A stretch of DNA of 9,176 bases, from positions 1 to 9,176 of the forward strand of contig JALUDQ010000200.1 of the NCBI GenBank assembly GCA_027043985.1. The letters run 5' to 3'. The position numbers and the translations under genes are program-made. Below are positions 2,841 to 9,176 of the stretch, in pieces (position 1 is the stretch's first letter; the number at the start of each line of letters is the position of its first letter). Source of the DNA: Desulfurococcales archaeon (lineage in GTDB: Archaea; Thermoproteota; Thermoprotei_A; Sulfolobales; WANQ01). The notes beneath the pieces were generated by a model. The model was not told where the DNA came from. It saw nothing but the letters and a program-made list of their open reading frames with translations, and made no database searches.

Positions 2841-3566
2841 TTGGCCCGCGTACTCGTAGTCAGATTAGAGCAAGGCCTAGTCAACGGCTTACACGGAAAA
2901 TACTATACGTGGAAGGGAGACTCTATACCCGAAGACTTCTCAAGCCTAGAAAAACTCTATGAGAGAATCGATCCACAAATAAACTTTGTCTGGTGGGATA
3001 AACCAGCACCAAATGTCCCAGCCGATAAGTTTGCAGTAGAATGGACGGGCTACCTAAGAGTTGAGAAAACAGGGCTATACCGGTTCTACATAGAAGTAGA
3101 TGACGGTGGTAGGCTATGGATAGACGATACCCTACTCATAGATGCTTGGAAGGAGCAACCACCAACAGTATATCATAGTGATATAGTTGAACTAGTACAC
3201 GGACTCCATAAAATACTATTCCGCTTCTTCAACAATGAGGTCTTCGCCGTAGTGAGATTGGGGTGGATAACACCAGATGGAAAAGCAGAAATCATTCCAA
3301 GGGAAAACCTTGTAACAAAGAAGAGCGATACAATAGAGGTAAGAGGGCTACCCGACAAATACAAGGTAGAATTATGGAGTGGTGAACCACTACTACAAGC
3401 AACCGTGGAGAAAGGCAAAGCAATAATGAATGCATCGAAACTAAAGGAACCCGTGGATGCTTACTTCAAAATATATGACGAGAAAGGAGAACTCATTGGA
3501 GAATCACCAGTAATAAGAGACGTCTGGGGCGGAGACGTATTTGAGATAACAATTGGGAAGGAATAA
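2841..3566 (+). CDS. Cytoplasmic PA14-domain protein
   Basis: The protein is 241 aa. Residues about 16-157 read as a PA14 beta-barrel: GLHGKYY opening, FAVEWTGYLRVEKTGLYRFY (64-83), then the hallmark VDDGGRLWIDDTLLIDAW (86-103) and a later GLHKILFRFFN (121-131). PA14 domains usually bind carbohydrates and occur in secreted adhesins, glycosidases and toxins; in the lectin-like members the DDG acidic pair helps bind calcium. Residues about 165-241 form a second beta-rich domain (VELWSGEPLLQATVEKGKA and AYFKIYDEKGELIGES), resembling a small Ig-like or PEGA-like sandwich, family unknown. There is no signal peptide or membrane helix, even if the frame is extended upstream, so it is probably intracellular, which is unusual. 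The stop is 3 bp from the stop of the convergent paralogue A. Ligand and partner are unknown. Confidence 0.85.
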   Translation: MARVLVVRLEQGLVNGLHGKYYTWKGDSIPEDFSSLEKLYERIDPQINFVWWDKPAPNVPADKFAVEWTGYLRVEKTGLYRFYIEVDDGGRLWIDDTLLIDAWKEQPPTVYHSDIVELVHGLHKILFRFFNNEVFAVVRLGWITPDGKAEIIPRENLVTKKSDTIEVRGLPDKYKVELWSGEPLLQATVEKGKAIMNASKLKEPVDAYFKIYDEKGELIGESPVIRDVWGGDVFEITIGKE

Positions 3567-3569
3567 CAC

Positions 3570-4568
3570 TTACTTATTTCCAGATGATGGTGTACCTACC
3601 TCTACGTTTATCTTCAGCAAGTCTTTTAGCTTTGATGAATTTATCTTACAGATTCTAGCATTAAGATTATCTGATCCTTTCAAGTTATCTAATGCGTCAT
3701 GACCATATGTTTCCAAACCAAAGGTATCACACCACGCACCTATTAGTGAACCATTAATGAAGAGGATATGGCATTCTGTTTCTTCTCCAGACTGTATTCG
3801 TGCTAGTAAGGGCTCGTTGGGGTGATCACTTTGGCTCATTATGCGTAGGGCTTCGAGTATCTTGTCAAGATTCGTTGATTCAAGTTCTATGATTTTCTCT
3901 GCTCCCTCTATTAACGCGTTGTTTGTTAAAGCCATTCTTCTACCAATCTCAGCTGTCTCGTCTCTACCGTGTATGTGTGTTTCCTCGACGCTGGCCTTAA
4001 TAGGCTCTGGTACAACTATGTCTATATCATCGCCTACGAGTTCGATTACTGGCTTCTCGACGTAGGTTATCTTAGTCTCCATTGGGATAAACAATGCTAT
4101 TTCCTCATATTTAACTGGTCTATCAAGCCTACTCTCTGGGTCAACATCCAGTTTCAGTGTAACCTCTACTTCACTAGTCTTCATAAGCTCCACAACACCT
4201 ACAAGAGAGGGAGAAGACAATATATCAACAAGCCTCTTTAAGGCATTTCCACCACGATAAGTCTTGATATCCTCAATACTCTCAATGCCAACTATACCTC
4301 CCTTAAGAACATATAGTATAAAAGAGGCCTTCGTCGGAGCCGCTATATGAACCCTCACAATACCTGTAAAATTCGAGTCTTTACCACATAGCTCAGATAG
4401 TTTTTTCAAAATATCGCTTTTGCTTCCCCTCCCAAAGTCTATTCTAGAGCTTTTCTCTACTCCTCTCTCAGTAAGTTCTGTAGACTCTTTTGTACGGTCA
4501 ACGAGACCTTCAAATAGTTCCTCGTGCTCCACTCGGGTCACCTTATAAAGATAGGAGGGTTTTTCCAC
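3570..4568 (-). CDS. Paralogue A: tandem-module protein of the Roadblock cluster (DUF2226/PATAN-like)
   Basis: The 332-aa soluble protein has no catalytic motif I recognise. After a charged, probably disordered N-terminus (1-50), module 1 covers about 51-162: FTGIVRV (67-73), LYVLKGGIVGIES (85-97), YRGGNALKRLV (104-114), GVVELM (124-129), then LFIP. A linker (165-215) leads to module 2, about 222-322: PLLARIQSGEETECHILF, INGSLIGAWCDTFGLETYG, HDALDNL. Both modules share the pattern strand, (N/K)G-x-I-x-G, and AL helix, so the protein looks internally duplicated. The same two modules occur in the proteins at 5293-6660 and 6752-7927. C266 and C280 are shared with the latter. The start is GTG 4568, without a Shine-Dalgarno site but about 26 nt from a TATA box, suggesting a leaderless mRNA. 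It is divergent from the Roadblock gene. DUF2226 membership is from memory; role in Roadblock signalling is inferred. Confidence 0.8.
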   Translation of the reverse strand: MEKPSYLYKVTRVEHEELFEGLVDRTKESTELTERGVEKSSRIDFGRGSKSDILKKLSELCGKDSNFTGIVRVHIAAPTKASFILYVLKGGIVGIESIEDIKTYRGGNALKRLVDILSSPSLVGVVELMKTSEVEVTLKLDVDPESRLDRPVKYEEIALFIPMETKITYVEKPVIELVGDDIDIVVPEPIKASVEETHIHGRDETAEIGRRMALTNNALIEGAEKIIELESTNLDKILEALRIMSQSDHPNEPLLARIQSGEETECHILFINGSLIGAWCDTFGLETYGHDALDNLKGSDNLNARICKINSSKLKDLLKINVEVGTPSSGNK

Positions 4569-4588
4569 TGCTATTATTAGGGCCCGCT

Positions 4589-4598
4589 ATTTTTAAAT
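4589..4598 (-). promoter_or_regulatory. TATA box of paralogue A, leaderless promoter
   Basis: On the minus strand the sequence reads ATTTAAAAAT, preceded by the purine-rich BRE-like GATAACC. Its centre is about 26 nt before GTG 4568, the normal archaeal TATA-to-start distance, so transcription should begin at or next to the start codon. Confidence 0.5.
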
Positions 4599-4674
4599 GG
4601 TTATCAGAAAAAGTTAGGTACAATTTTAATACATTGCCACTATATTTGAAAGTATTATCCATGAAGATTATTTG

Positions 4675-4689
4675 CGAAATACTTATATA
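4675..4689 (+). promoter_or_regulatory. BRE/TATA promoter of the Roadblock gene
   Basis: CGAAAT (BRE-like, 4675-4680) is followed by CTTATATA (4682-4689). The expected start near 4711-4716 gives a leader of about 35 nt containing a strong ribosome binding site. Together with the box at 4589-4598 it makes the 180-bp gap a divergent promoter region. Confidence 0.6.
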
Positions 4690-4735
4690 GAAGCACATAA
4701 TAAGATAACGTGACACAACAAAGAATTGTAAACTC

Positions 4736-4743
4736 GGGGTGAT
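4736..4743 (+). promoter_or_regulatory. Ribosome binding site of the Roadblock gene
   Basis: GGGGTGAT contains GGTGAT, complementary to the archaeal 16S rRNA 3' end, 5 nt before ATG 4749. Confidence 0.65.
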
Positions 4744-4748
4744 TATAT

Positions 4749-5105
4749 ATGTCTGAGATAGCAAGAAGAATCCTAGGAGAAATAACACGTGTAGAAGGAG
4801 TAAGAGCTGCAATAGTAGTATCACGTGATGGACTAGTACTAGATGCCGTCATCCCGAGAAGAGACATTAACCCCGAAGACATAGCTGTAGCAGTAATGCA
4901 AATAGTTAATGCAACTGATAGACTAGGCAAGGACTTCGGCCTAGGAAACACCGACATAACAAGTGTAGAGTATACAAACGGCATAATAATGGTAGGCACC
5001 ATGGGCGACAATGTCCTCGCAGTAGTAGCTGAGCGCGGCGCAATGCTAGGAATGATTAGAAACGAAATAAAGAAGCAGAGAGAGAGATTAAGAGCAGCCA
5101 TATAA
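4749..5105 (+). CDS. Roadblock/LC7-domain protein (MglB-like)
   Basis: The 118-aa protein is a single Roadblock/LC7 domain of normal length: helix SEIARRILGEITRVEGV (2-18), strands RAAIVVSRDGLVLDAVIP (19-36), helix PEDIAVAVMQIVNATDRLG (42-60), strands SVEYTNGIIMVGTMGDNVLA with the buried face visible (72-91), and a basic C-terminal helix (97-118) ending KKQRERLRAAI. Roadblock proteins dimerise through the second helix and strand and, in bacteria (MglB) and eukaryotes, act on Ras-like GTPases as activators or scaffolds. No GTPase lies in this window, so its partner is encoded elsewhere or the protein is purely structural. It has the best promoter and ribosome binding site in the region. It is divergent from paralogue A and 187 bp upstream of paralogue B on the same strand. 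Family call is confident; pairing with A, B and C is inferred from position. Confidence 0.92.
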   Translation: MSEIARRILGEITRVEGVRAAIVVSRDGLVLDAVIPRRDINPEDIAVAVMQIVNATDRLGKDFGLGNTDITSVEYTNGIIMVGTMGDNVLAVVAERGAMLGMIRNEIKKQRERLRAAI

Positions 5106-5133
5106 CACTAATTCAAGATTATTAAACACGAGC

Positions 5134-5141
5134 TTCTTTTT
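5134..5141 (+). terminator. T-run after the Roadblock gene
   Basis: TTCTTTTT about 30 nt after the Roadblock stop. Archaeal RNA polymerase terminates at such T-runs without a hairpin, so it may separate the Roadblock transcript from the gene at 5293. Evidence is only the T-run. Confidence 0.35.
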
Positions 5142-5284
5142 ATTAATGATAAACAATTCTCTATAGCAAAATTACTCAAACATTATTTTCTTGCTTAAAA
5201 GTATAATTTAAATTGCTTAACCTTTTAAGTTAGTAATAGTAGATATAAGGTACTAGAAGACGGAGAGTACTTGTACATAGGAGT

Positions 5285-5289
5285 GGTGA
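5285..5289 (+). promoter_or_regulatory. Ribosome binding site at the TTG start of paralogue B
   Basis: GGTGA, only 3 nt before TTG 5293. No ATG or GTG occurs in this frame before the conserved first module, so TTG is the best start. Spacing is short, which may mean weak initiation. Confidence 0.45.
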
Positions 5290-5292
5290 AAA

Positions 5293-6660
5293 TTGAGGCC
5301 CGTAGCTAAGGGTGTTACTAAAAAATTTATACGAATAACAGAAGATAAAGAGGCTACGGTAAACGAGTTGAAGAATAGTATTGATAGAACATTTACGGGT
5401 AGAATTCAAGGTATACTCAGAACAGATAAAGGAGAATTAGAGATAGTAATAGAGGTTTTACGGGGTAGGATTGTAGCAGCTGGTGTAGAAGGCCATACAC
5501 GTATTGATGGCGGGTTAGCTTTAAACACTATAGTTAATGCTATTATTGAGGGAACGGGATTCCTTGAAATAATAGAATTAAATGAGGAGGGAGTAAACTT
5601 AGACTTAGAGTTTAACCCAAATGCTAAGTTATCAATGCCTACAAGCCTCGAACTATACATTAATAGAATAGAGCTCAGACTACGCCAATTGCAGAGAAAA
5701 AAAGAAACTCAGCCGACATGGACATCACCACCTAGAAGAAGACCAATAGAGAAAACACGGAGAGAAGAAGTCGAAAAACCCAGACCTCCTGCTGAGACTA
5801 GTCAACCTGTGAGAAGAGAGACTCAACCGAGGAAAGTAGAAGAGAAGTCTCTAAAAGAATCAGAACCCGAGGTTAAAGAAAAAACAATAGCAGTAGAGAA
5901 ATCAGAGTCTGAGAAAAAGAAGATACTCGAAGAAATAGGATTAGACGAGGAAGTGCTGGAGGGTCTCGTAGTAAATGTCAAGGAGAAACCCCCCGTAATT
6001 GTTGCCTTACCCTCTAGTGAGAGAACCTCTGTGGCCCAAGTAGCTACTGAGACTGCTGGATCAGCTGTCGAGAAATCAATTGAGGAAAGACCCATTGTTG
6101 AAGAGTTACGTCCAGTTCCGAAAACTGAAGTTGAACGTGCACCGCAAGTAAAGGAGATCACTCCGAGTCCGGAGGAATTACTATCTAAGCTACCATTAAG
6201 TGATAAAATAGAAGAATATAGTAAATCACTATTATCAGAAACTGATAAATTATTGTTATCACTAATTGAGACCTCCAACATATTAAGTCATGGACGAGAT
6301 AAAGTTGACGTTGTGTTCAAGAAAACACTTGACTTATCAAAGAATACCGATAAACCAGTAAAGCTTAGCACAGCTACAGCGGGTAAGCTATATTATATAA
6401 TAGTACATAATGGTTCAATAATATCGGCGTTTAAAGTAGATGAAAATTCAGAAAACATTGAATTGTATGGGCGTGCTGCACTAGTGGACTTATTTAAGAA
6501 GCTGTTATCGGAGAATATAGATTATGTTGTATCACTCGTTAAAAGCAAATACGTGTTATCAAGTTTAGGTCTGATAAAAAGAGAGGAAGTAGAAGAAGAA
6601 GTGGAAGAGCGAGCTGAGGGTCTCTTTGGTAGACTTAGAAAAATCTTTGGTGGTAAATGA
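5293..6660 (+). CDS. Paralogue B: long-linker tandem-module protein with possible membrane-targeting tail
   Basis: The 455-aa soluble protein has module 1 at about 20-125 (FTGRIQGIL 34-42, IEVLRGRIVAAGVEG 53-67, DGGLALNTIVNAI 72-84, GFLEIIEL 89-96, LDLEFNPNAKL 103-113), which of the three is the best match to my memory of DUF2226. A roughly 170-residue linker (130-300) is rich in Glu, Lys, Arg and Pro and probably disordered, with a short helix-like island IGLDEEVLEGLVV (215-227). A helical segment (294-330) precedes module 2 at about 337-425 (KPVKLSTATAGKLYYIIVHN, GSIISAF, YGRAALVDLFKKL). The end is an acidic stretch (430-442) followed by LFGRLRKIFGGK, an amphipathic basic helix like the MinD membrane-targeting tail. 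The Cys pair seen in A and C is replaced by Tyr/Phe-type residues. Probably a scaffold linking a membrane surface to the Roadblock protein: inference. It converges with paralogue C, 91 bp away. Confidence 0.82.
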   Translation: MRPVAKGVTKKFIRITEDKEATVNELKNSIDRTFTGRIQGILRTDKGELEIVIEVLRGRIVAAGVEGHTRIDGGLALNTIVNAIIEGTGFLEIIELNEEGVNLDLEFNPNAKLSMPTSLELYINRIELRLRQLQRKKETQPTWTSPPRRRPIEKTRREEVEKPRPPAETSQPVRRETQPRKVEEKSLKESEPEVKEKTIAVEKSESEKKKILEEIGLDEEVLEGLVVNVKEKPPVIVALPSSERTSVAQVATETAGSAVEKSIEERPIVEELRPVPKTEVERAPQVKEITPSPEELLSKLPLSDKIEEYSKSLLSETDKLLLSLIETSNILSHGRDKVDVVFKKTLDLSKNTDKPVKLSTATAGKLYYIIVHNGSIISAFKVDENSENIELYGRAALVDLFKKLLSENIDYVVSLVKSKYVLSSLGLIKREEVEEEVEERAEGLFGRLRKIFGGK

Positions 6661-6688
6661 AGTGAGAATAAGTTGAATCTTTCCCTAT

Positions 6689-6703
6689 AGCTTATAAGCT
6701 TAT
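6689..6703. repeat. Overlapping short palindromes between convergent genes
   Basis: AGCTTATAAGCT (6689-6700) is a perfect 12-nt palindrome and overlaps the 10-nt palindrome ATAAGCTTAT (6694-6703). They lie in the 91-bp gap between the convergent stops of paralogues B and C. They might form a small hairpin on either transcript or bind a protein, but such AT-rich palindromes also arise by chance. Confidence 0.3.
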
Positions 6704-6751
6704 TGTAGACCATTTTAACCAAAACATCAAATATTTATGAATTATATAATA

Positions 6752-7927
6752 TTAGATATTGTTCTCTATGAGGAGTTTTGCCATACTGGTAGCATATTTC
6801 CAGTCTTCCTCATCCACCTTATACCATGGTGCATCTACTTCCTCTCTATCGATAGTTTTTATTGTACTGATCTCCGATGCGAGGATATATGGGAGTACAT
6901 GTAAAGCTAATACTCTGTTTATCTTTTCCTCTGCATTGCCAGTATATAGGTGTCCGCCTATTCTTATTATACGCTTACTTGATATAATTATATAGTATTT
7001 TACTTTTGATTTCCCTAATTCTAATAGACCAGTATAATAGCCTTTGAGATCGTCTAGAGCATAGAGGATCTTCTCCTTGGTTTCGCGGTACAAGTCGTTG
7101 AATACTAGTTGTCTTAGCTCAACTGTATATCCTGTTTTCTGTCGTACGAGGAATTCTACTGCTTTACGGTTAGTTATTGTTATACCCATGTTATCACAGT
7201 AGATCCCAGCAATCCTATCATCTATTATAAGCGCCATGCAGTTAACAGTTTCATCATTTGTACTTATCTTTGCAATGATTACTTGTTTTCGCTTACCATA
7301 CTTGCTCAATAATTCCAATAGGTCAACGGCTGTTGCTGCAGTTAGTATTCCTAATGGCTTGGTCTTTCTTATTAAGTGCTCGTAGTAGTTGCTTAGAAAC
7401 TCGCTATACTTGTCAACTAATCCACGGTTGCGTATGAATTTTACCTTGATCTTCTTAGAACGTTTACGAATCTTCTTAACAATGCCAAATCCCTTCTTGA
7501 CCTCGCGTGCAATAATCTTTGTGGGTGTTGGTGGTTGCTCTTCTAGTGTTTGATAGCCTGGTATGAGTGTTACAAGATCTCCAAAGTATACTGGGAGTTC
7601 TAGGGCTATTAGCGGGTTCCCTGAGATTTTTGTCTCTACTTCATATCTCATCATTTCTATGAAATCTACTCTACCCGTTACACTAGGATTAGATAGTTCT
7701 TCGAGGAGGCTACGTAGGGCGCTTCCACCATAAAGTGATACTTCTCCACGTTTTCCCTCGGCATAGACGATAGCTCCACGTATTATTCCCAGATTATATT
7801 TTGAACTAGAATAACCGGACAAGATTATCTTCAATAACCCAGTGAACATGGGGGTTGCTCTTGAACTATATCCAACGAGTCTTGCAATAAGCTCGTTTCT
7901 TGAGAGATACATTTGACCTAAAGACAT
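6752..7927 (-). CDS. Paralogue C: tandem-module protein with basic linker
   Basis: The 391-aa soluble protein has module 1 at about 11-123 (FTGLLKIIL 28-36, LGIIRGAIVYAEGK 46-59, YGGSALRSLLEEL 66-78, TGRVDFIEMM 84-93, then VTLIP), which aligns with A through FTG, RGxIV, GGxAL and LIP. The linker 131-175 is strikingly basic (13 Lys/Arg between 144 and 168). Module 2, about 196-285, has VIIAKISTNDETVNCMALII and DDRIAGIYCDNMGI, with C230 and C244 spaced exactly as C266 and C280 of A. A further segment (297-358, YTGLLELGKSKVKYYIII and KRIIRIGGH) resembles a degenerate third copy, followed by a Trp- and acid-containing C-terminus. The start may be ATG 7927 or the nearby M6 (ATG at 7912-7910), which has AGGT just upstream. 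The gene is divergent from the substrate-binding protein. Function unknown; association with the Roadblock protein is inferred from homology and position. Confidence 0.8.
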   Translation of the reverse strand: MSLGQMYLSRNELIARLVGYSSRATPMFTGLLKIILSGYSSSKYNLGIIRGAIVYAEGKRGEVSLYGGSALRSLLEELSNPSVTGRVDFIEMMRYEVETKISGNPLIALELPVYFGDLVTLIPGYQTLEEQPPTPTKIIAREVKKGFGIVKKIRKRSKKIKVKFIRNRGLVDKYSEFLSNYYEHLIRKTKPLGILTAATAVDLLELLSKYGKRKQVIIAKISTNDETVNCMALIIDDRIAGIYCDNMGITITNRKAVEFLVRQKTGYTVELRQLVFNDLYRETKEKILYALDDLKGYYTGLLELGKSKVKYYIIISSKRIIRIGGHLYTGNAEEKINRVLALHVLPYILASEISTIKTIDREEVDAPWYKVDEEDWKYATSMAKLLIENNI

Positions 7928-8207: not shown

Positions 8208-9176
8208 ATGGATAATAAGTATATCATTGGAATAATCATAGCATTGATAGTAGGAATAGGAATAGGCTATGTGGTTCTAATAGGAACTGTGAAGCCCGTA
8301 ACAACAACGGTAACAGTCCCTAAGACCGTTACAGCTACATCAACACAAACACTAGTGAAGACTACAACTATTCCGACAACTACCGTTACGACTACTACAC
8401 TTGTATCTACAATAGTTACTACTACAACTTATGAAAAAACCATTACAAGCCCCACAACTAGTGTTACAACAATTACCAAACCAGTAACATTGACTGTGAC
8501 TTCTATAGTAAATAAGACTGTAACTAAGACTCTAGTCTATAAGATAGTCTATGATGCTCTTGGAAGACTGATAACGTTTAACCAGACGCCAGAGAGAATA
8601 GTGTGTCTCGCACCAAGTATTACTGAAATAGTCTTTGCTCTAGGACTAGGCGATAAAGTAGTTGGAGTCGACGACTATAGCAATTATCCGCCAGAAGTGA
8701 ACGAGCTTGTTAAGGAGGGTAAGATCCAACGAGTGGGTGGTTACTGGACACCAGATTTCGAGAAGATAGCAGAACTTAAACCAGACCTAGTGTTAGCTAG
8801 TGTTAGTCCTCACGCAAAAATGCTTGATAAGTTTAAGGAGCTTGGCTTAAAGGTGGTTTTCTTAAAGTCTAGTACTGCACGAAACGCCTACGATATATAT
8901 CAAGATATAGTGTTGGTGGCATCAATATTCAATGTGGATGATAAGGCCAGGAAGCTAATAGATAATATTCAGTCAATAATAGATAATGTAACCCAGACTC
9001 TGGCGAAGGCAAACGTTACTCCAGTAAGGACTCTGATAATACTAGGCCCGCCATCATGGGGTCTATGGACTACTGGTGGTGATACGTTCATAGACTATGT
9101 TATAACAACTAGTGGTGGTGTGAATATCGCATCAAAGTATAGTGGATGGGTTAAACTAGACTATGAGGAAATACTG
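8208..9176 (+). CDS. BtuF/FecB-like ABC transporter substrate-binding protein, 3' end missing
   Basis: The frame runs from ATG 8208 to the window end (323 codons) with no stop, so the C-terminus is missing. Residues 5-27 form a hydrophobic anchor (IIGIIIALIVGIGIGYVVLI) with no lipobox Cys. A Thr/Val-rich stalk follows (27-108), then the binding domain from about 110: PERIVCLAPSITEIVFALGL (128-147), DKVVGVDDYSNYPPEV, RVGGYWTPDFEKIAELKPDL, VLASVSP, and later PPSWGLWTTGGDTFIDYV. This is the Peripla_BP_2 family (cobalamin BtuF, siderophore FepB/FhuD). The NYPPEV and GGYWTPDFEKI blocks are closer to cobalamin binders, but iron chelates are also possible. It acts outside the cell, tethered to the membrane and delivering ligand to an ABC permease probably encoded downstream. 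GGGTG 5 nt upstream supports the start. Confidence 0.9.
   Translation, partial: MDNKYIIGIIIALIVGIGIGYVVLIGTVKPVTTTVTVPKTVTATSTQTLVKTTTIPTTTVTTTTLVSTIVTTTTYEKTITSPTTSVTTITKPVTLTVTSIVNKTVTKTLVYKIVYDALGRLITFNQTPERIVCLAPSITEIVFALGLGDKVVGVDDYSNYPPEVNELVKEGKIQRVGGYWTPDFEKIAELKPDLVLASVSPHAKMLDKFKELGLKVVFLKSSTARNAYDIYQDIVLVASIFNVDDKARKLIDNIQSIIDNVTQTLAKANVTPVRTLIILGPPSWGLWTTGGDTFIDYVITTSGGVNIASKYSGWVKLDYEEIL
8286..8531 (+). repeat. Low-complexity Thr-codon repeat coding a protein stalk
   Basis: ACN/GTN-rich sequence coding residues 27-108 of the substrate-binding protein; about 38 of 82 residues are Thr, in irregular TTTVT-like runs. Such stalks in archaeal surface proteins are likely O-glycosylated and span the space under the S-layer. 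The repeat is imprecise, so slippage could vary its length between strains. Confidence 0.7.

What the first reader, a model, noticed from the sequence alone, without database searches (positions are those of the whole stretch)
2841..7927. Possible undescribed Roadblock-centred cluster: PA14 protein, Roadblock/LC7 and three tandem-module paralogues
Five adjacent genes encode a cytoplasmic PA14 protein, one Roadblock protein and three proteins (A, B, C) that share two modules. Three divergent paralogues kept side by side around a Roadblock gene suggests a multi-subunit assembly. Roadblock proteins and PATAN/DUF4388-type domains are known to go together in prokaryotic small-GTPase signalling, but no GTPase is present here. 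Gene content is read from sequence; one shared system is inference, because the genes lie on both strands and are not a single operon.
Basis: partly seen in the sequence, partly recalled or inferred. Interest (0 to 1): 0.72.

Follow-up and report, generated by a model that had tools for sequence, protein, structure and literature searches.

The report
Roadblock with tandem pilus-linked adaptor proteins
An uncultured archaeon carries a Roadblock gene beside three related proteins, each with at least two copies of one small module; relatives of these proteins sit in type IV pilus gene clusters near the motor ATPase gene, so the set likely forms a regulator, predicted to work without a small GTPase, that would control a pilus-type motor.

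Summary
In detail: A, B and C each carry at least two copies of a ~105-residue module, with one Roadblock gene between A and B. PA14 looks like a bystander: its family occurs in 48 of 147 genomes of the order and was not near Roadblock or module genes in 12 of 12 neighbourhoods inspected outside the genus.

The core is a Roadblock-module pair: 14 of 25 Roadblock genes called (window and relatives) have a module gene within 8 kb. A third partner, a divergent Roadblock plus zinc-ribbon protein, was found in 24 of 28 Roadblock-positive genomes; the four without it are the window's family, which carries the A/B/C expansion.

17 of 64 module genes lie near a T2SSE-family ATPase, 14 of them also near TadC/T2SSF, in type IV pilus loci, several in Roadblock-negative genomes. 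A survey reports archaeal Roadblock proteins in pilus loci; bacterial PATAN and MglB systems are the nearest mechanism.

I read it as a likely Roadblock-scaffolded regulator of a pilus-type motor, predicted to need no small GTPase. Against: no Roadblock gene here is near T2SSE, and no interface was tested. New variant of a known kind.

The parts
3570..4568 (-). Protein A (332 aa), tandem-module protein; closest paralogue is C
   Evidence: N-terminal module tree joins A and C 100/97
4125..4442 (-). A, module 1 (residues 43-148)
   Evidence: module profile i-E 9.8e-22
3621..3896 (-). A, module 2 (residues 225-316)
   Evidence: module profile i-E 5.1e-17
3729..3773 (-). A Cys266 and Cys280, on consecutive predicted strands of module 2, invariant in 19 of 19 A/C rows; possible disulfide or metal site (inferred)
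4749..5105 (+). Roadblock/LC7 protein (118 aa), the proposed hub
   Evidence: PF03259 44.7 bits, cut-off 23; best solved relative 7yh1 E 4.1e-7
5293..6660 (+). Protein B (455 aa): module 1, variable charged linker, module 2, basic-hydrophobic tail
5311..5631 (+). B, module 1 (residues 7-113)
   Evidence: i-E 2.4e-30; block pLDDT 90-96 over residues 1-120
5914..6012 (+). B, conserved island in the linker (residues 208-240): 70% invariant in 8 orthologues, flanks 1% and 4%
6268..6516 (+). B, module 2 (residues 326-408)
   Evidence: i-E 7.4e-12
6619..6657 (+). B, C-terminal basic-hydrophobic tail GLFGRLRKIFGGK, a candidate membrane-binding helix (inferred)
   Evidence: similar tails in several Roadblock-linked relatives; helical-moment test not significant for B
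6752..7927 (-). Protein C (391 aa), tandem-module protein
7601..7921 (-). C, module 1 (residues 3-109)
   Evidence: i-E 3.8e-21
7115..7327 (-). C, module 2 (residues 201-271)
   Evidence: i-E 5.4e-10
6956..7102 (-). C, partial third module-like stretch (residues 276-324)
   Evidence: i-E 5.6e-7, profile positions 6-58 of 108
2841..3566 (+). PA14-domain protein: judged a bystander, listed because the finding included it
   Evidence: not near Roadblock or module genes in 12 of 12 neighbourhoods outside the genus

Best explanation
The Roadblock protein and the tandem-module proteins A, B and C likely form a cytoplasmic regulatory complex that would control a type IV pilus-type motor ATPase encoded elsewhere in the genome. 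Shown: the module architecture, the recurring Roadblock-module gene pairing, a third Roadblock-like zinc-ribbon partner in related families, and the presence of other module genes in pilus loci near the T2SSE ATPase gene. Inferred: a Roadblock dimer acts as scaffold for the adaptors; B's basic-hydrophobic tail, or the hydrophobic C-terminus of the zinc-ribbon partner in other families, holds the complex at the membrane; the modules touch the motor ATPase and change where or when it works; A, B and C are alternative adaptors for one hub. No small GTPase is predicted to be needed.
For: Tandem modules in A, B, C. Roadblock-module adjacency: 14 of 25 Roadblock genes called in fetched stretches (window and G014 included) have a module gene within 8 kb. 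Co-occurrence in 147 genomes, not corrected for kinship: at module E <= 1e-8, 23 of 32 Roadblock-positive and 15 of 115 Roadblock-negative genomes, Fisher p 3e-10; at E <= 1e-3, 27 of 32 and 36 of 115, p 7e-8. Pilus link: 17 of 64 module genes lie within 8 kb of a T2SSE-type ATPase and 14 of these also near TadC/T2SSF; outside the order, 5 of 5 module genes found in the 300-genome search are next to T2SSE. A profile of 11 B-type N-termini, ten of them from genes beside Roadblock and none from a pilus locus, hits 15 of the 17 T2SSE-neighbouring proteins at E 5e-28 to 2e-5 and misses two. On the module tree the pilus-linked rows fall in three places, two of them forced by well-supported branches. 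[quoted passage not shown] PATAN proteins are encoded near MglB homologues (PMC4316618, passages); the PATAN response regulator PixE is hypothesised to bind PilB1 (PMC7690835, passages).
Against: 0 of 25 Roadblock genes and none of the 19 Roadblock-linked module genes are within 8 kb of T2SSE: the two contexts exclude each other in my sample, and within this order every pilus-locus module gene found lies in a Roadblock-negative genome. The T2SSE matches of the window's family (3-6 per genome, only 12 candidates scored in each) were not located or typed, and their best E-values (1e-22 to 1e-28) are weaker than those of many relatives. The link to PATAN/DUF4388 and DUF2226 is below cut-off for A, B and C. 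Fold searches with the A and B models gave no telling solved relative. 19 of 64 module genes are near none of the three partners, some on short contigs. The helical-moment test of the tail was not significant for B. No interaction was predicted or measured.
Confidence: 0.4

Rival explanations
1. The Roadblock-module set is a membrane-near scaffold with no role in pili: a Ragulator-like platform in which Roadblock, the zinc-ribbon Roadblock protein and module adaptors organise some other NTPase or sensor, while other members of the module family were recruited separately to pilus loci.
For: Roadblock and T2SSE contexts never coincide here (0 of 25). The zinc-ribbon partner has full-length hits in 24 of 28 Roadblock-positive and 2 of 89 Roadblock-negative genomes of the 117 searched, and 16 of 20 such genes called lie near a module gene, 10 near Roadblock. 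A paper states that some Roadblock/longin proteins have roles outside small-GTPase regulation (PMC10933270, passages).
Against: Does not explain why pilus linkage appears in separate places of the module tree, nor the published arCOG02603-T4P association.
Confidence: 0.35
2. The Roadblock protein is an ordinary MglB-type regulator of a small Ras-like GTPase encoded elsewhere, and A-C are its co-factors.
For: In bacteria MglB, MglA-type GTPase and PATAN genes are reported near each other, and a Crenarchaeota-only group of Rup GTPases exists (PMC4316618, passages).
Against: Pfam Arf search: one match each in G014 (97% complete), G025 and G003 (100% complete), all in 373-381 aa frames; the G014 one carries GTP-bdg_N and GTP-bdg_M domains (HflX-type); none in G000 (63% complete). 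The G025 and G003 matches were not scanned and other GTPase profiles were not run.
Confidence: 0.1
3. No shared system: B is the partner of Roadblock, while A, C and PA14 are neighbours by local duplication and chance.
For: Genes lie on both strands; in G003 an A-type gene sits with a second B-type gene on another contig than Roadblock; C was matched only in the genus.
Confidence: 0.1
4. The first reader's five-gene system including PA14.
For: Adjacency of PA14 and A in the three genus members.
Against: PA14 homologues in 48 of 147 genomes; not near Roadblock or module genes in 12 of 12 inspected neighbourhoods outside the genus; 68% identical in G003 on another contig; in L151 and L156 it lies near a relative of the window's upstream pantothenate synthetase gene instead.
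Confidence: 0.03

Closest known systems
MglB Roadblock proteins with PATAN/DUF4388 proteins in bacterial motility and type IV pilus control
   Same: A single-domain Roadblock protein encoded beside a module protein; papers place PATAN genes near MglB genes, hypothesise PATAN-PilB1 binding, and show an MglA pathway recruiting PilB (passages).
   Different: No MglA-type GTPase found; modules come at least in pairs, in B joined by a variable linker; no receiver domain by Pfam; Pfam DUF4388 score below cut-off; archaeal.
Pfam DUF2226 (PF09987), uncharacterised archaeal proteins
   Same: 4 of 28 modules of the family match it at E <= 1, best E 1.2e-6; one pilus-linked member reaches the cut-off (22.8 against 22 bits).
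   Different: A, B and C themselves give no DUF2226 match at E <= 1.
Archaeal type IV pilus loci carrying arCOG02603 Roadblock proteins (PMC4858521)
   Same: Roadblock proteins are reported in such loci (section 17 read); module relatives sit in such loci here.
   Different: No pilus gene in the window; in the passages and section I saw, the paper does not mention DUF2226 or DUF4388.
Ragulator/TRAPP-type Roadblock platforms and Asgard Roadblock proteins
   Same: Roadblock domain by sequence; best solved match 7yh1, E 4.1e-7, an entry named in the Asgard paper PMC10933270 (one occurrence counted, passage not shown).
   Different: No longin, TRAPPC3 or Rag/Rab partner seen in the window; dimerisation not tested.

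Membership tests
Roadblock/LC7 (PF03259) | Profile match above the curated cut-off | tested here: met
   44.7 bits, cut-off 23
MglA/MglB GTPase-GAP systems | Small Ras-like GTPase gene coupled to the Roadblock gene | tested here: not met
   No GTPase among the 10 window proteins scanned; the PF00025 matches of G014, G025 and G003 lie on other contigs in 373-381 aa frames, G014's is HflX-type
MglA/MglB GTPase-GAP systems | GAP activity of the Roadblock dimer | not testable with these tools
   needs biochemistry
PATAN / DUF4388 (PF14332) | Profile match above the curated cut-off | tested here: not met
   B 12.9 bits, cut-off 25; A and C no match; best among 28 modules E 0.0023
DUF2226 (PF09987) | Profile match above the curated cut-off | tested here: not met
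   No match for A, B, C at E <= 1; some relatives match
Archaeal type IV pilus locus | T2SSE ATPase, TadC/T2SSF and pilin genes in the locus | tested here: not met
   None among the window proteins and no T2SSE or TadC match within 8 kb of the module genes of the G014 copy. Seen at relatives: T2SSE and TadC in L103, L109-L111 and L226-L235; Pfam confirmed in part of them; pilins judged by eye
Known protein fold | Clear match of the module to a solved structure | tested here: inconclusive
Ragulator/TRAPP Roadblock platforms | Roadblock or longin dimers bound to a GTPase | not testable with these tools
   only single chains can be folded

The most novel reading that the evidence does not exclude
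Thermoproteota run a Roadblock signalling system without a small GTPase: a Roadblock hub carrying interchangeable tandem-module adaptors, plus a membrane zinc-ribbon Roadblock partner in most Roadblock-bearing families of this order, that governs pilus/secretion motor ATPases; the window's family replaced the zinc-ribbon partner by an expanded A/B/C adaptor set.
Probability: 0.3. Interest if true: 0.78.

Novelty: new variant of a known kind. Interest (0 to 1): 0.6.

Why it matters
One survey counts 328 MglB homologues not coupled to an MglA gene and says no orphan MglB had been characterised experimentally (PMC4316618, passages). A defined partner family, found both beside Roadblock genes and beside pilus motor ATPase genes, would make the question of what orphan Roadblock proteins regulate directly testable. 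In Ignicoccus (same order-level group, recalled) the Roadblock protein is abundant and rises three-fold when Nanoarchaeum is present (PMC3149612, passages), which fits a surface-related role but does not show it.

Tried and rejected
PA14 as a system member: rejected. Small GTPase in the genus: the match in G014 is HflX-type; my first guess from frame length (DRG, in my notes) was wrong and was corrected. Fold identification of the module by Foldseek and VIA-align: no telling match; Roadblock folds were not among the rows listed, which excludes nothing. PDB search with the module profile: best E 0.41, a designed protein. A ~171-residue protein (A9) next to Roadblock in other families looked to me by eye like Bet3/V4R; PDB and Pfam searches gave no support, so dropped. 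B's tail as an amphipathic helix: moment against shuffles not significant for B (p 0.37) nor for 7 of the other 8 tails tried (p 0.07-0.47); L097 p 0.01; kept as a hint on conservation alone. The linker island of B as a general Roadblock-binding motif: I do not see it in the two B-type proteins of G003, so at most genus-level.

Limits and dropped rows. L105 (same gene as L236) was dropped before the 64-gene count. My longest-ORF filter hid the Roadblock genes of L061 (G033) and L056 (G046), which are not among the 25, and the module gene of L239 (G037), which is not among the 64; L061's module gene was set as Roadblock-linked by its coordinates. The 64 include paralogues and near copies from close relatives, and several stretches are short contigs. 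Stretches around Roadblock were not fetched for G037, G038, G106, G133, G138, G139 and G143, 7 of the 32 positive genomes; G025's Roadblock is split and was not called. By coordinates alone a weak module match lies 0.7 kb from Roadblock in G139, and none lies on the same contig in G037, G106, G133, G138 or G143 as far as listed. The 26 full-length zinc-ribbon hits were picked by hand from the listing (E 1.4e-19 or better, over 150 or more profile positions); weaker zinc-ribbon-only matches, present in G014, G025 and G003 too, were not counted; I assumed its 117 genomes are handles G000-G116. Presence lists were copied by hand into the script. In the module tree six near-duplicate loci and short matches were left out, L092/L093 repeat L233/L234, L236 was labelled pilus-linked although its contig ends before any T2SSE, and both L012 genes were labelled Roadblock-linked although Roadblock lies on another contig of that genome.
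Full report
What is there. The window is contig C200 of a 63%-complete genome. The two named records found with close relatives of B are Desulfurococcales/Thermoprotei metagenome assemblies; their contig lengths equal those of G014:C52 and G025:C24. Pfam finds PA14 and Robl_LC7 in the expected genes and nothing above cut-off in A, B or C. Flanks: HepT/nucleotidyltransferase pair, TudS-related protein and pantothenate synthetase upstream, an ABC substrate-binding protein downstream.

The three paralogues. A and C are clearly related pairwise (1e-13); B is related weakly. A profile started from 11 B-type N-termini and iterated over 765 ORFs finds two modules in A, two in B and two to three in C. 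The predicted A structure has the order helix-strand-strand-strand-helix-strand-helix in both halves (mean pLDDT 67.8). B's first module is predicted with block pLDDT 90-96, followed by a low-confidence linker. That linker is 51% E/K/P/R and almost free to vary, except for an island at 208-240 (70% invariant in eight orthologues; flanks 1% and 4%); the protein ends in a conserved basic-hydrophobic tail. A and C share two invariant cysteines (19 of 19 rows) on consecutive predicted strands of module 2. No solved structure matches the module tellingly.

Conservation. With C as query, 4 of 147 genomes of the order match: three of the window's genus, and G003, whose match is A-like (tree). Roadblock was found in 32 of 147, the same number with the window's protein and with Pfam PF03259. 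G014 keeps PA14, A, Roadblock, B and C in order; G025 is split inside Roadblock; G003 has Roadblock with a B-type gene on one contig and a second B-type gene with an A-type gene on another. Public protein matches for A, B and C repeat the same longest-contig lengths (11947, 36371, 17684 and 117148 for all three; 7985 and 201352 for A and B), which suggests the same cluster in other assemblies; this is inferred from lengths only.

PA14. Its family matches in 48 of 147 genomes. In 12 neighbourhoods outside the genus (9-19 kb each) no Roadblock or module gene was found; in two of them, L151 and L156, a relative of the pantothenate synthetase that precedes PA14 in the window lies nearby.

Wider pairing. 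Among 25 Roadblock genes called in fetched stretches, 14 have a module gene within 8 kb, 10 have a zinc-ribbon partner and none has a T2SSE gene. The zinc-ribbon partner has a divergent Roadblock domain (above the Pfam cut-off in G018, G099 and G005), cysteine-rich ribbons and, in 5 of 6 aligned members by eye, hydrophobic C-terminal stretches. Full-length hits: 24 of 28 Roadblock-positive and 2 of 89 Roadblock-negative genomes; the four exceptions, G000, G014, G025 and G003, are the window's family as held. Module presence at E <= 1e-8: 23 of 32 Roadblock-positive, 15 of 115 negative. These tests are not corrected for kinship.

Pilus link. Many module genes of Roadblock-negative genomes turned up in type IV pilus loci. 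In L226-L232 and L235 the module gene lies 2.6-6.1 kb from a T2SSE gene that has TadC/T2SSF and pilin-like genes beside it; in L233 and L234 it is 7 bp from T2SSE; outside the order, in L103, L104 and L109-L111, it is 68-79 bp away. Pfam confirmed T2SSE in L103, L104, L109, L111 and L226 and T2SSF in L103 and L226; the rest are by similarity to L109 and L103 proteins. In total 17 of 64 module genes have T2SSE within 8 kb, 14 of them also TadC; two of the 17 (G018, G099) are not pilus loci: the G018 neighbour is a PIN-T2SSE protein, and the G099 one has no TadC nearby. The seventeenth without TadC, L104, is on a 3.3 kb contig. Of the 15 Roadblock-negative genomes with a module at E <= 1e-8, eight show the pilus context, two (G034, G079) have the gene at a contig edge, and five do not; of these five, three are on contigs under 6.5 kb and two have a zinc-ribbon gene beside the module. 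The B-type seed profile hits 15 of the 17 proteins and misses L233 and L234, so this is mostly one recognisable family. In the tree the pilus-linked rows need three changes, two forced by well-supported branches.

Mechanism. [quoted passage not shown] A proteome table for Ignicoccus lists its Roadblock protein with the number 2603, which I take to be the same arCOG (the column head was not seen), and reports a three-fold rise in the presence of Nanoarchaeum (PMC3149612, passages). In bacteria the PATAN response regulator PixE is hypothesised to bind PilB1 (PMC7690835, passages), the MglA/SgmX pathway recruits PilB (PMC11580455, passages), and PATAN genes lie near MglB homologues (PMC4316618, passages). 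I therefore read the cluster as a Roadblock scaffold with tandem-module adaptors that would act on a pilus-type motor ATPase in trans, without a small GTPase. The adaptor-ATPase contact, the membrane tether and the competition of A, B and C are inferred.

What speaks against it. Roadblock and T2SSE never share a stretch in this sample, so the pilus link of the modules may belong to a separate branch of function. The window family's own T2SSE genes were counted but not located or typed. Pfam membership in PATAN or DUF2226 is not met for A, B and C. No interface could be computed here.

Novelty. Searches of the held open-access library found no paper with 'DUF2226', none with 'DUF4388' and 'roadblock' together, and one with 'roadblock' and 'Desulfurococcales', the T4P census. 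In these searches, judged from listings and the passages named above, I met no description of the Roadblock-module pair or of the zinc-ribbon partner; most subscription literature is not held.

Noticed in passing
2841-3566; L130, L147-L158: A PA14-domain protein without obvious signal peptide is widespread in the order (48 of 147 genomes); in 13 stretches compared no neighbour family is common to all, but a pantothenate synthetase relative lies near it in L009, L151 and L156. Its function inside the cell is unexplained.
   Followed up: partly
356-796 and 765-1199: HepT-like and nucleotidyltransferase (MNT-type) gene pair, a likely toxin-antitoxin-type pair.
   Followed up: no
L060:8962-9480, L113:9686-10198, L114:9880-10392, L115:690-1217, L116:9148-9666: A conserved ~171-residue protein without supported Pfam match lies 18-29 bp from the Roadblock gene in several other families, with the zinc-ribbon partner on its far side.
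   Followed up: partly
L045:2503-3129, L047:3987-4535, L113:10252-11076 and others: Divergent Roadblock plus zinc-ribbon protein family, found with Roadblock in 24 of 28 Roadblock-positive genomes searched and not found in the window's family.
   Followed up: yes
L100:10432-12012; L237: In G018 a module gene is next to a PIN-T2SSE (PINA-like; name recalled) ATPase gene, and in G099 next to a T2SSE-type gene; neither has TadC nearby.
   Followed up: partly
L097 (G000:C88), L098, L099: The window's genus has a further B-like module protein (about 323 aa, similar basic tail); in L098 it lies beside TldD/PmbA protease and MoxR genes.
   Followed up: partly
L226:10290-10697, L227:10393-10824, L230:7576-7989, L236:13241-13711: A ~136-157 residue protein, similar at its N-terminal part by eye and coiled-coil-like, lies beside the pilus-linked module genes; unknown function.
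   Followed up: no
8208-9176: ABC substrate-binding protein with a long Thr/Val-rich stalk after its N-terminal hydrophobic stretch.
   Followed up: no
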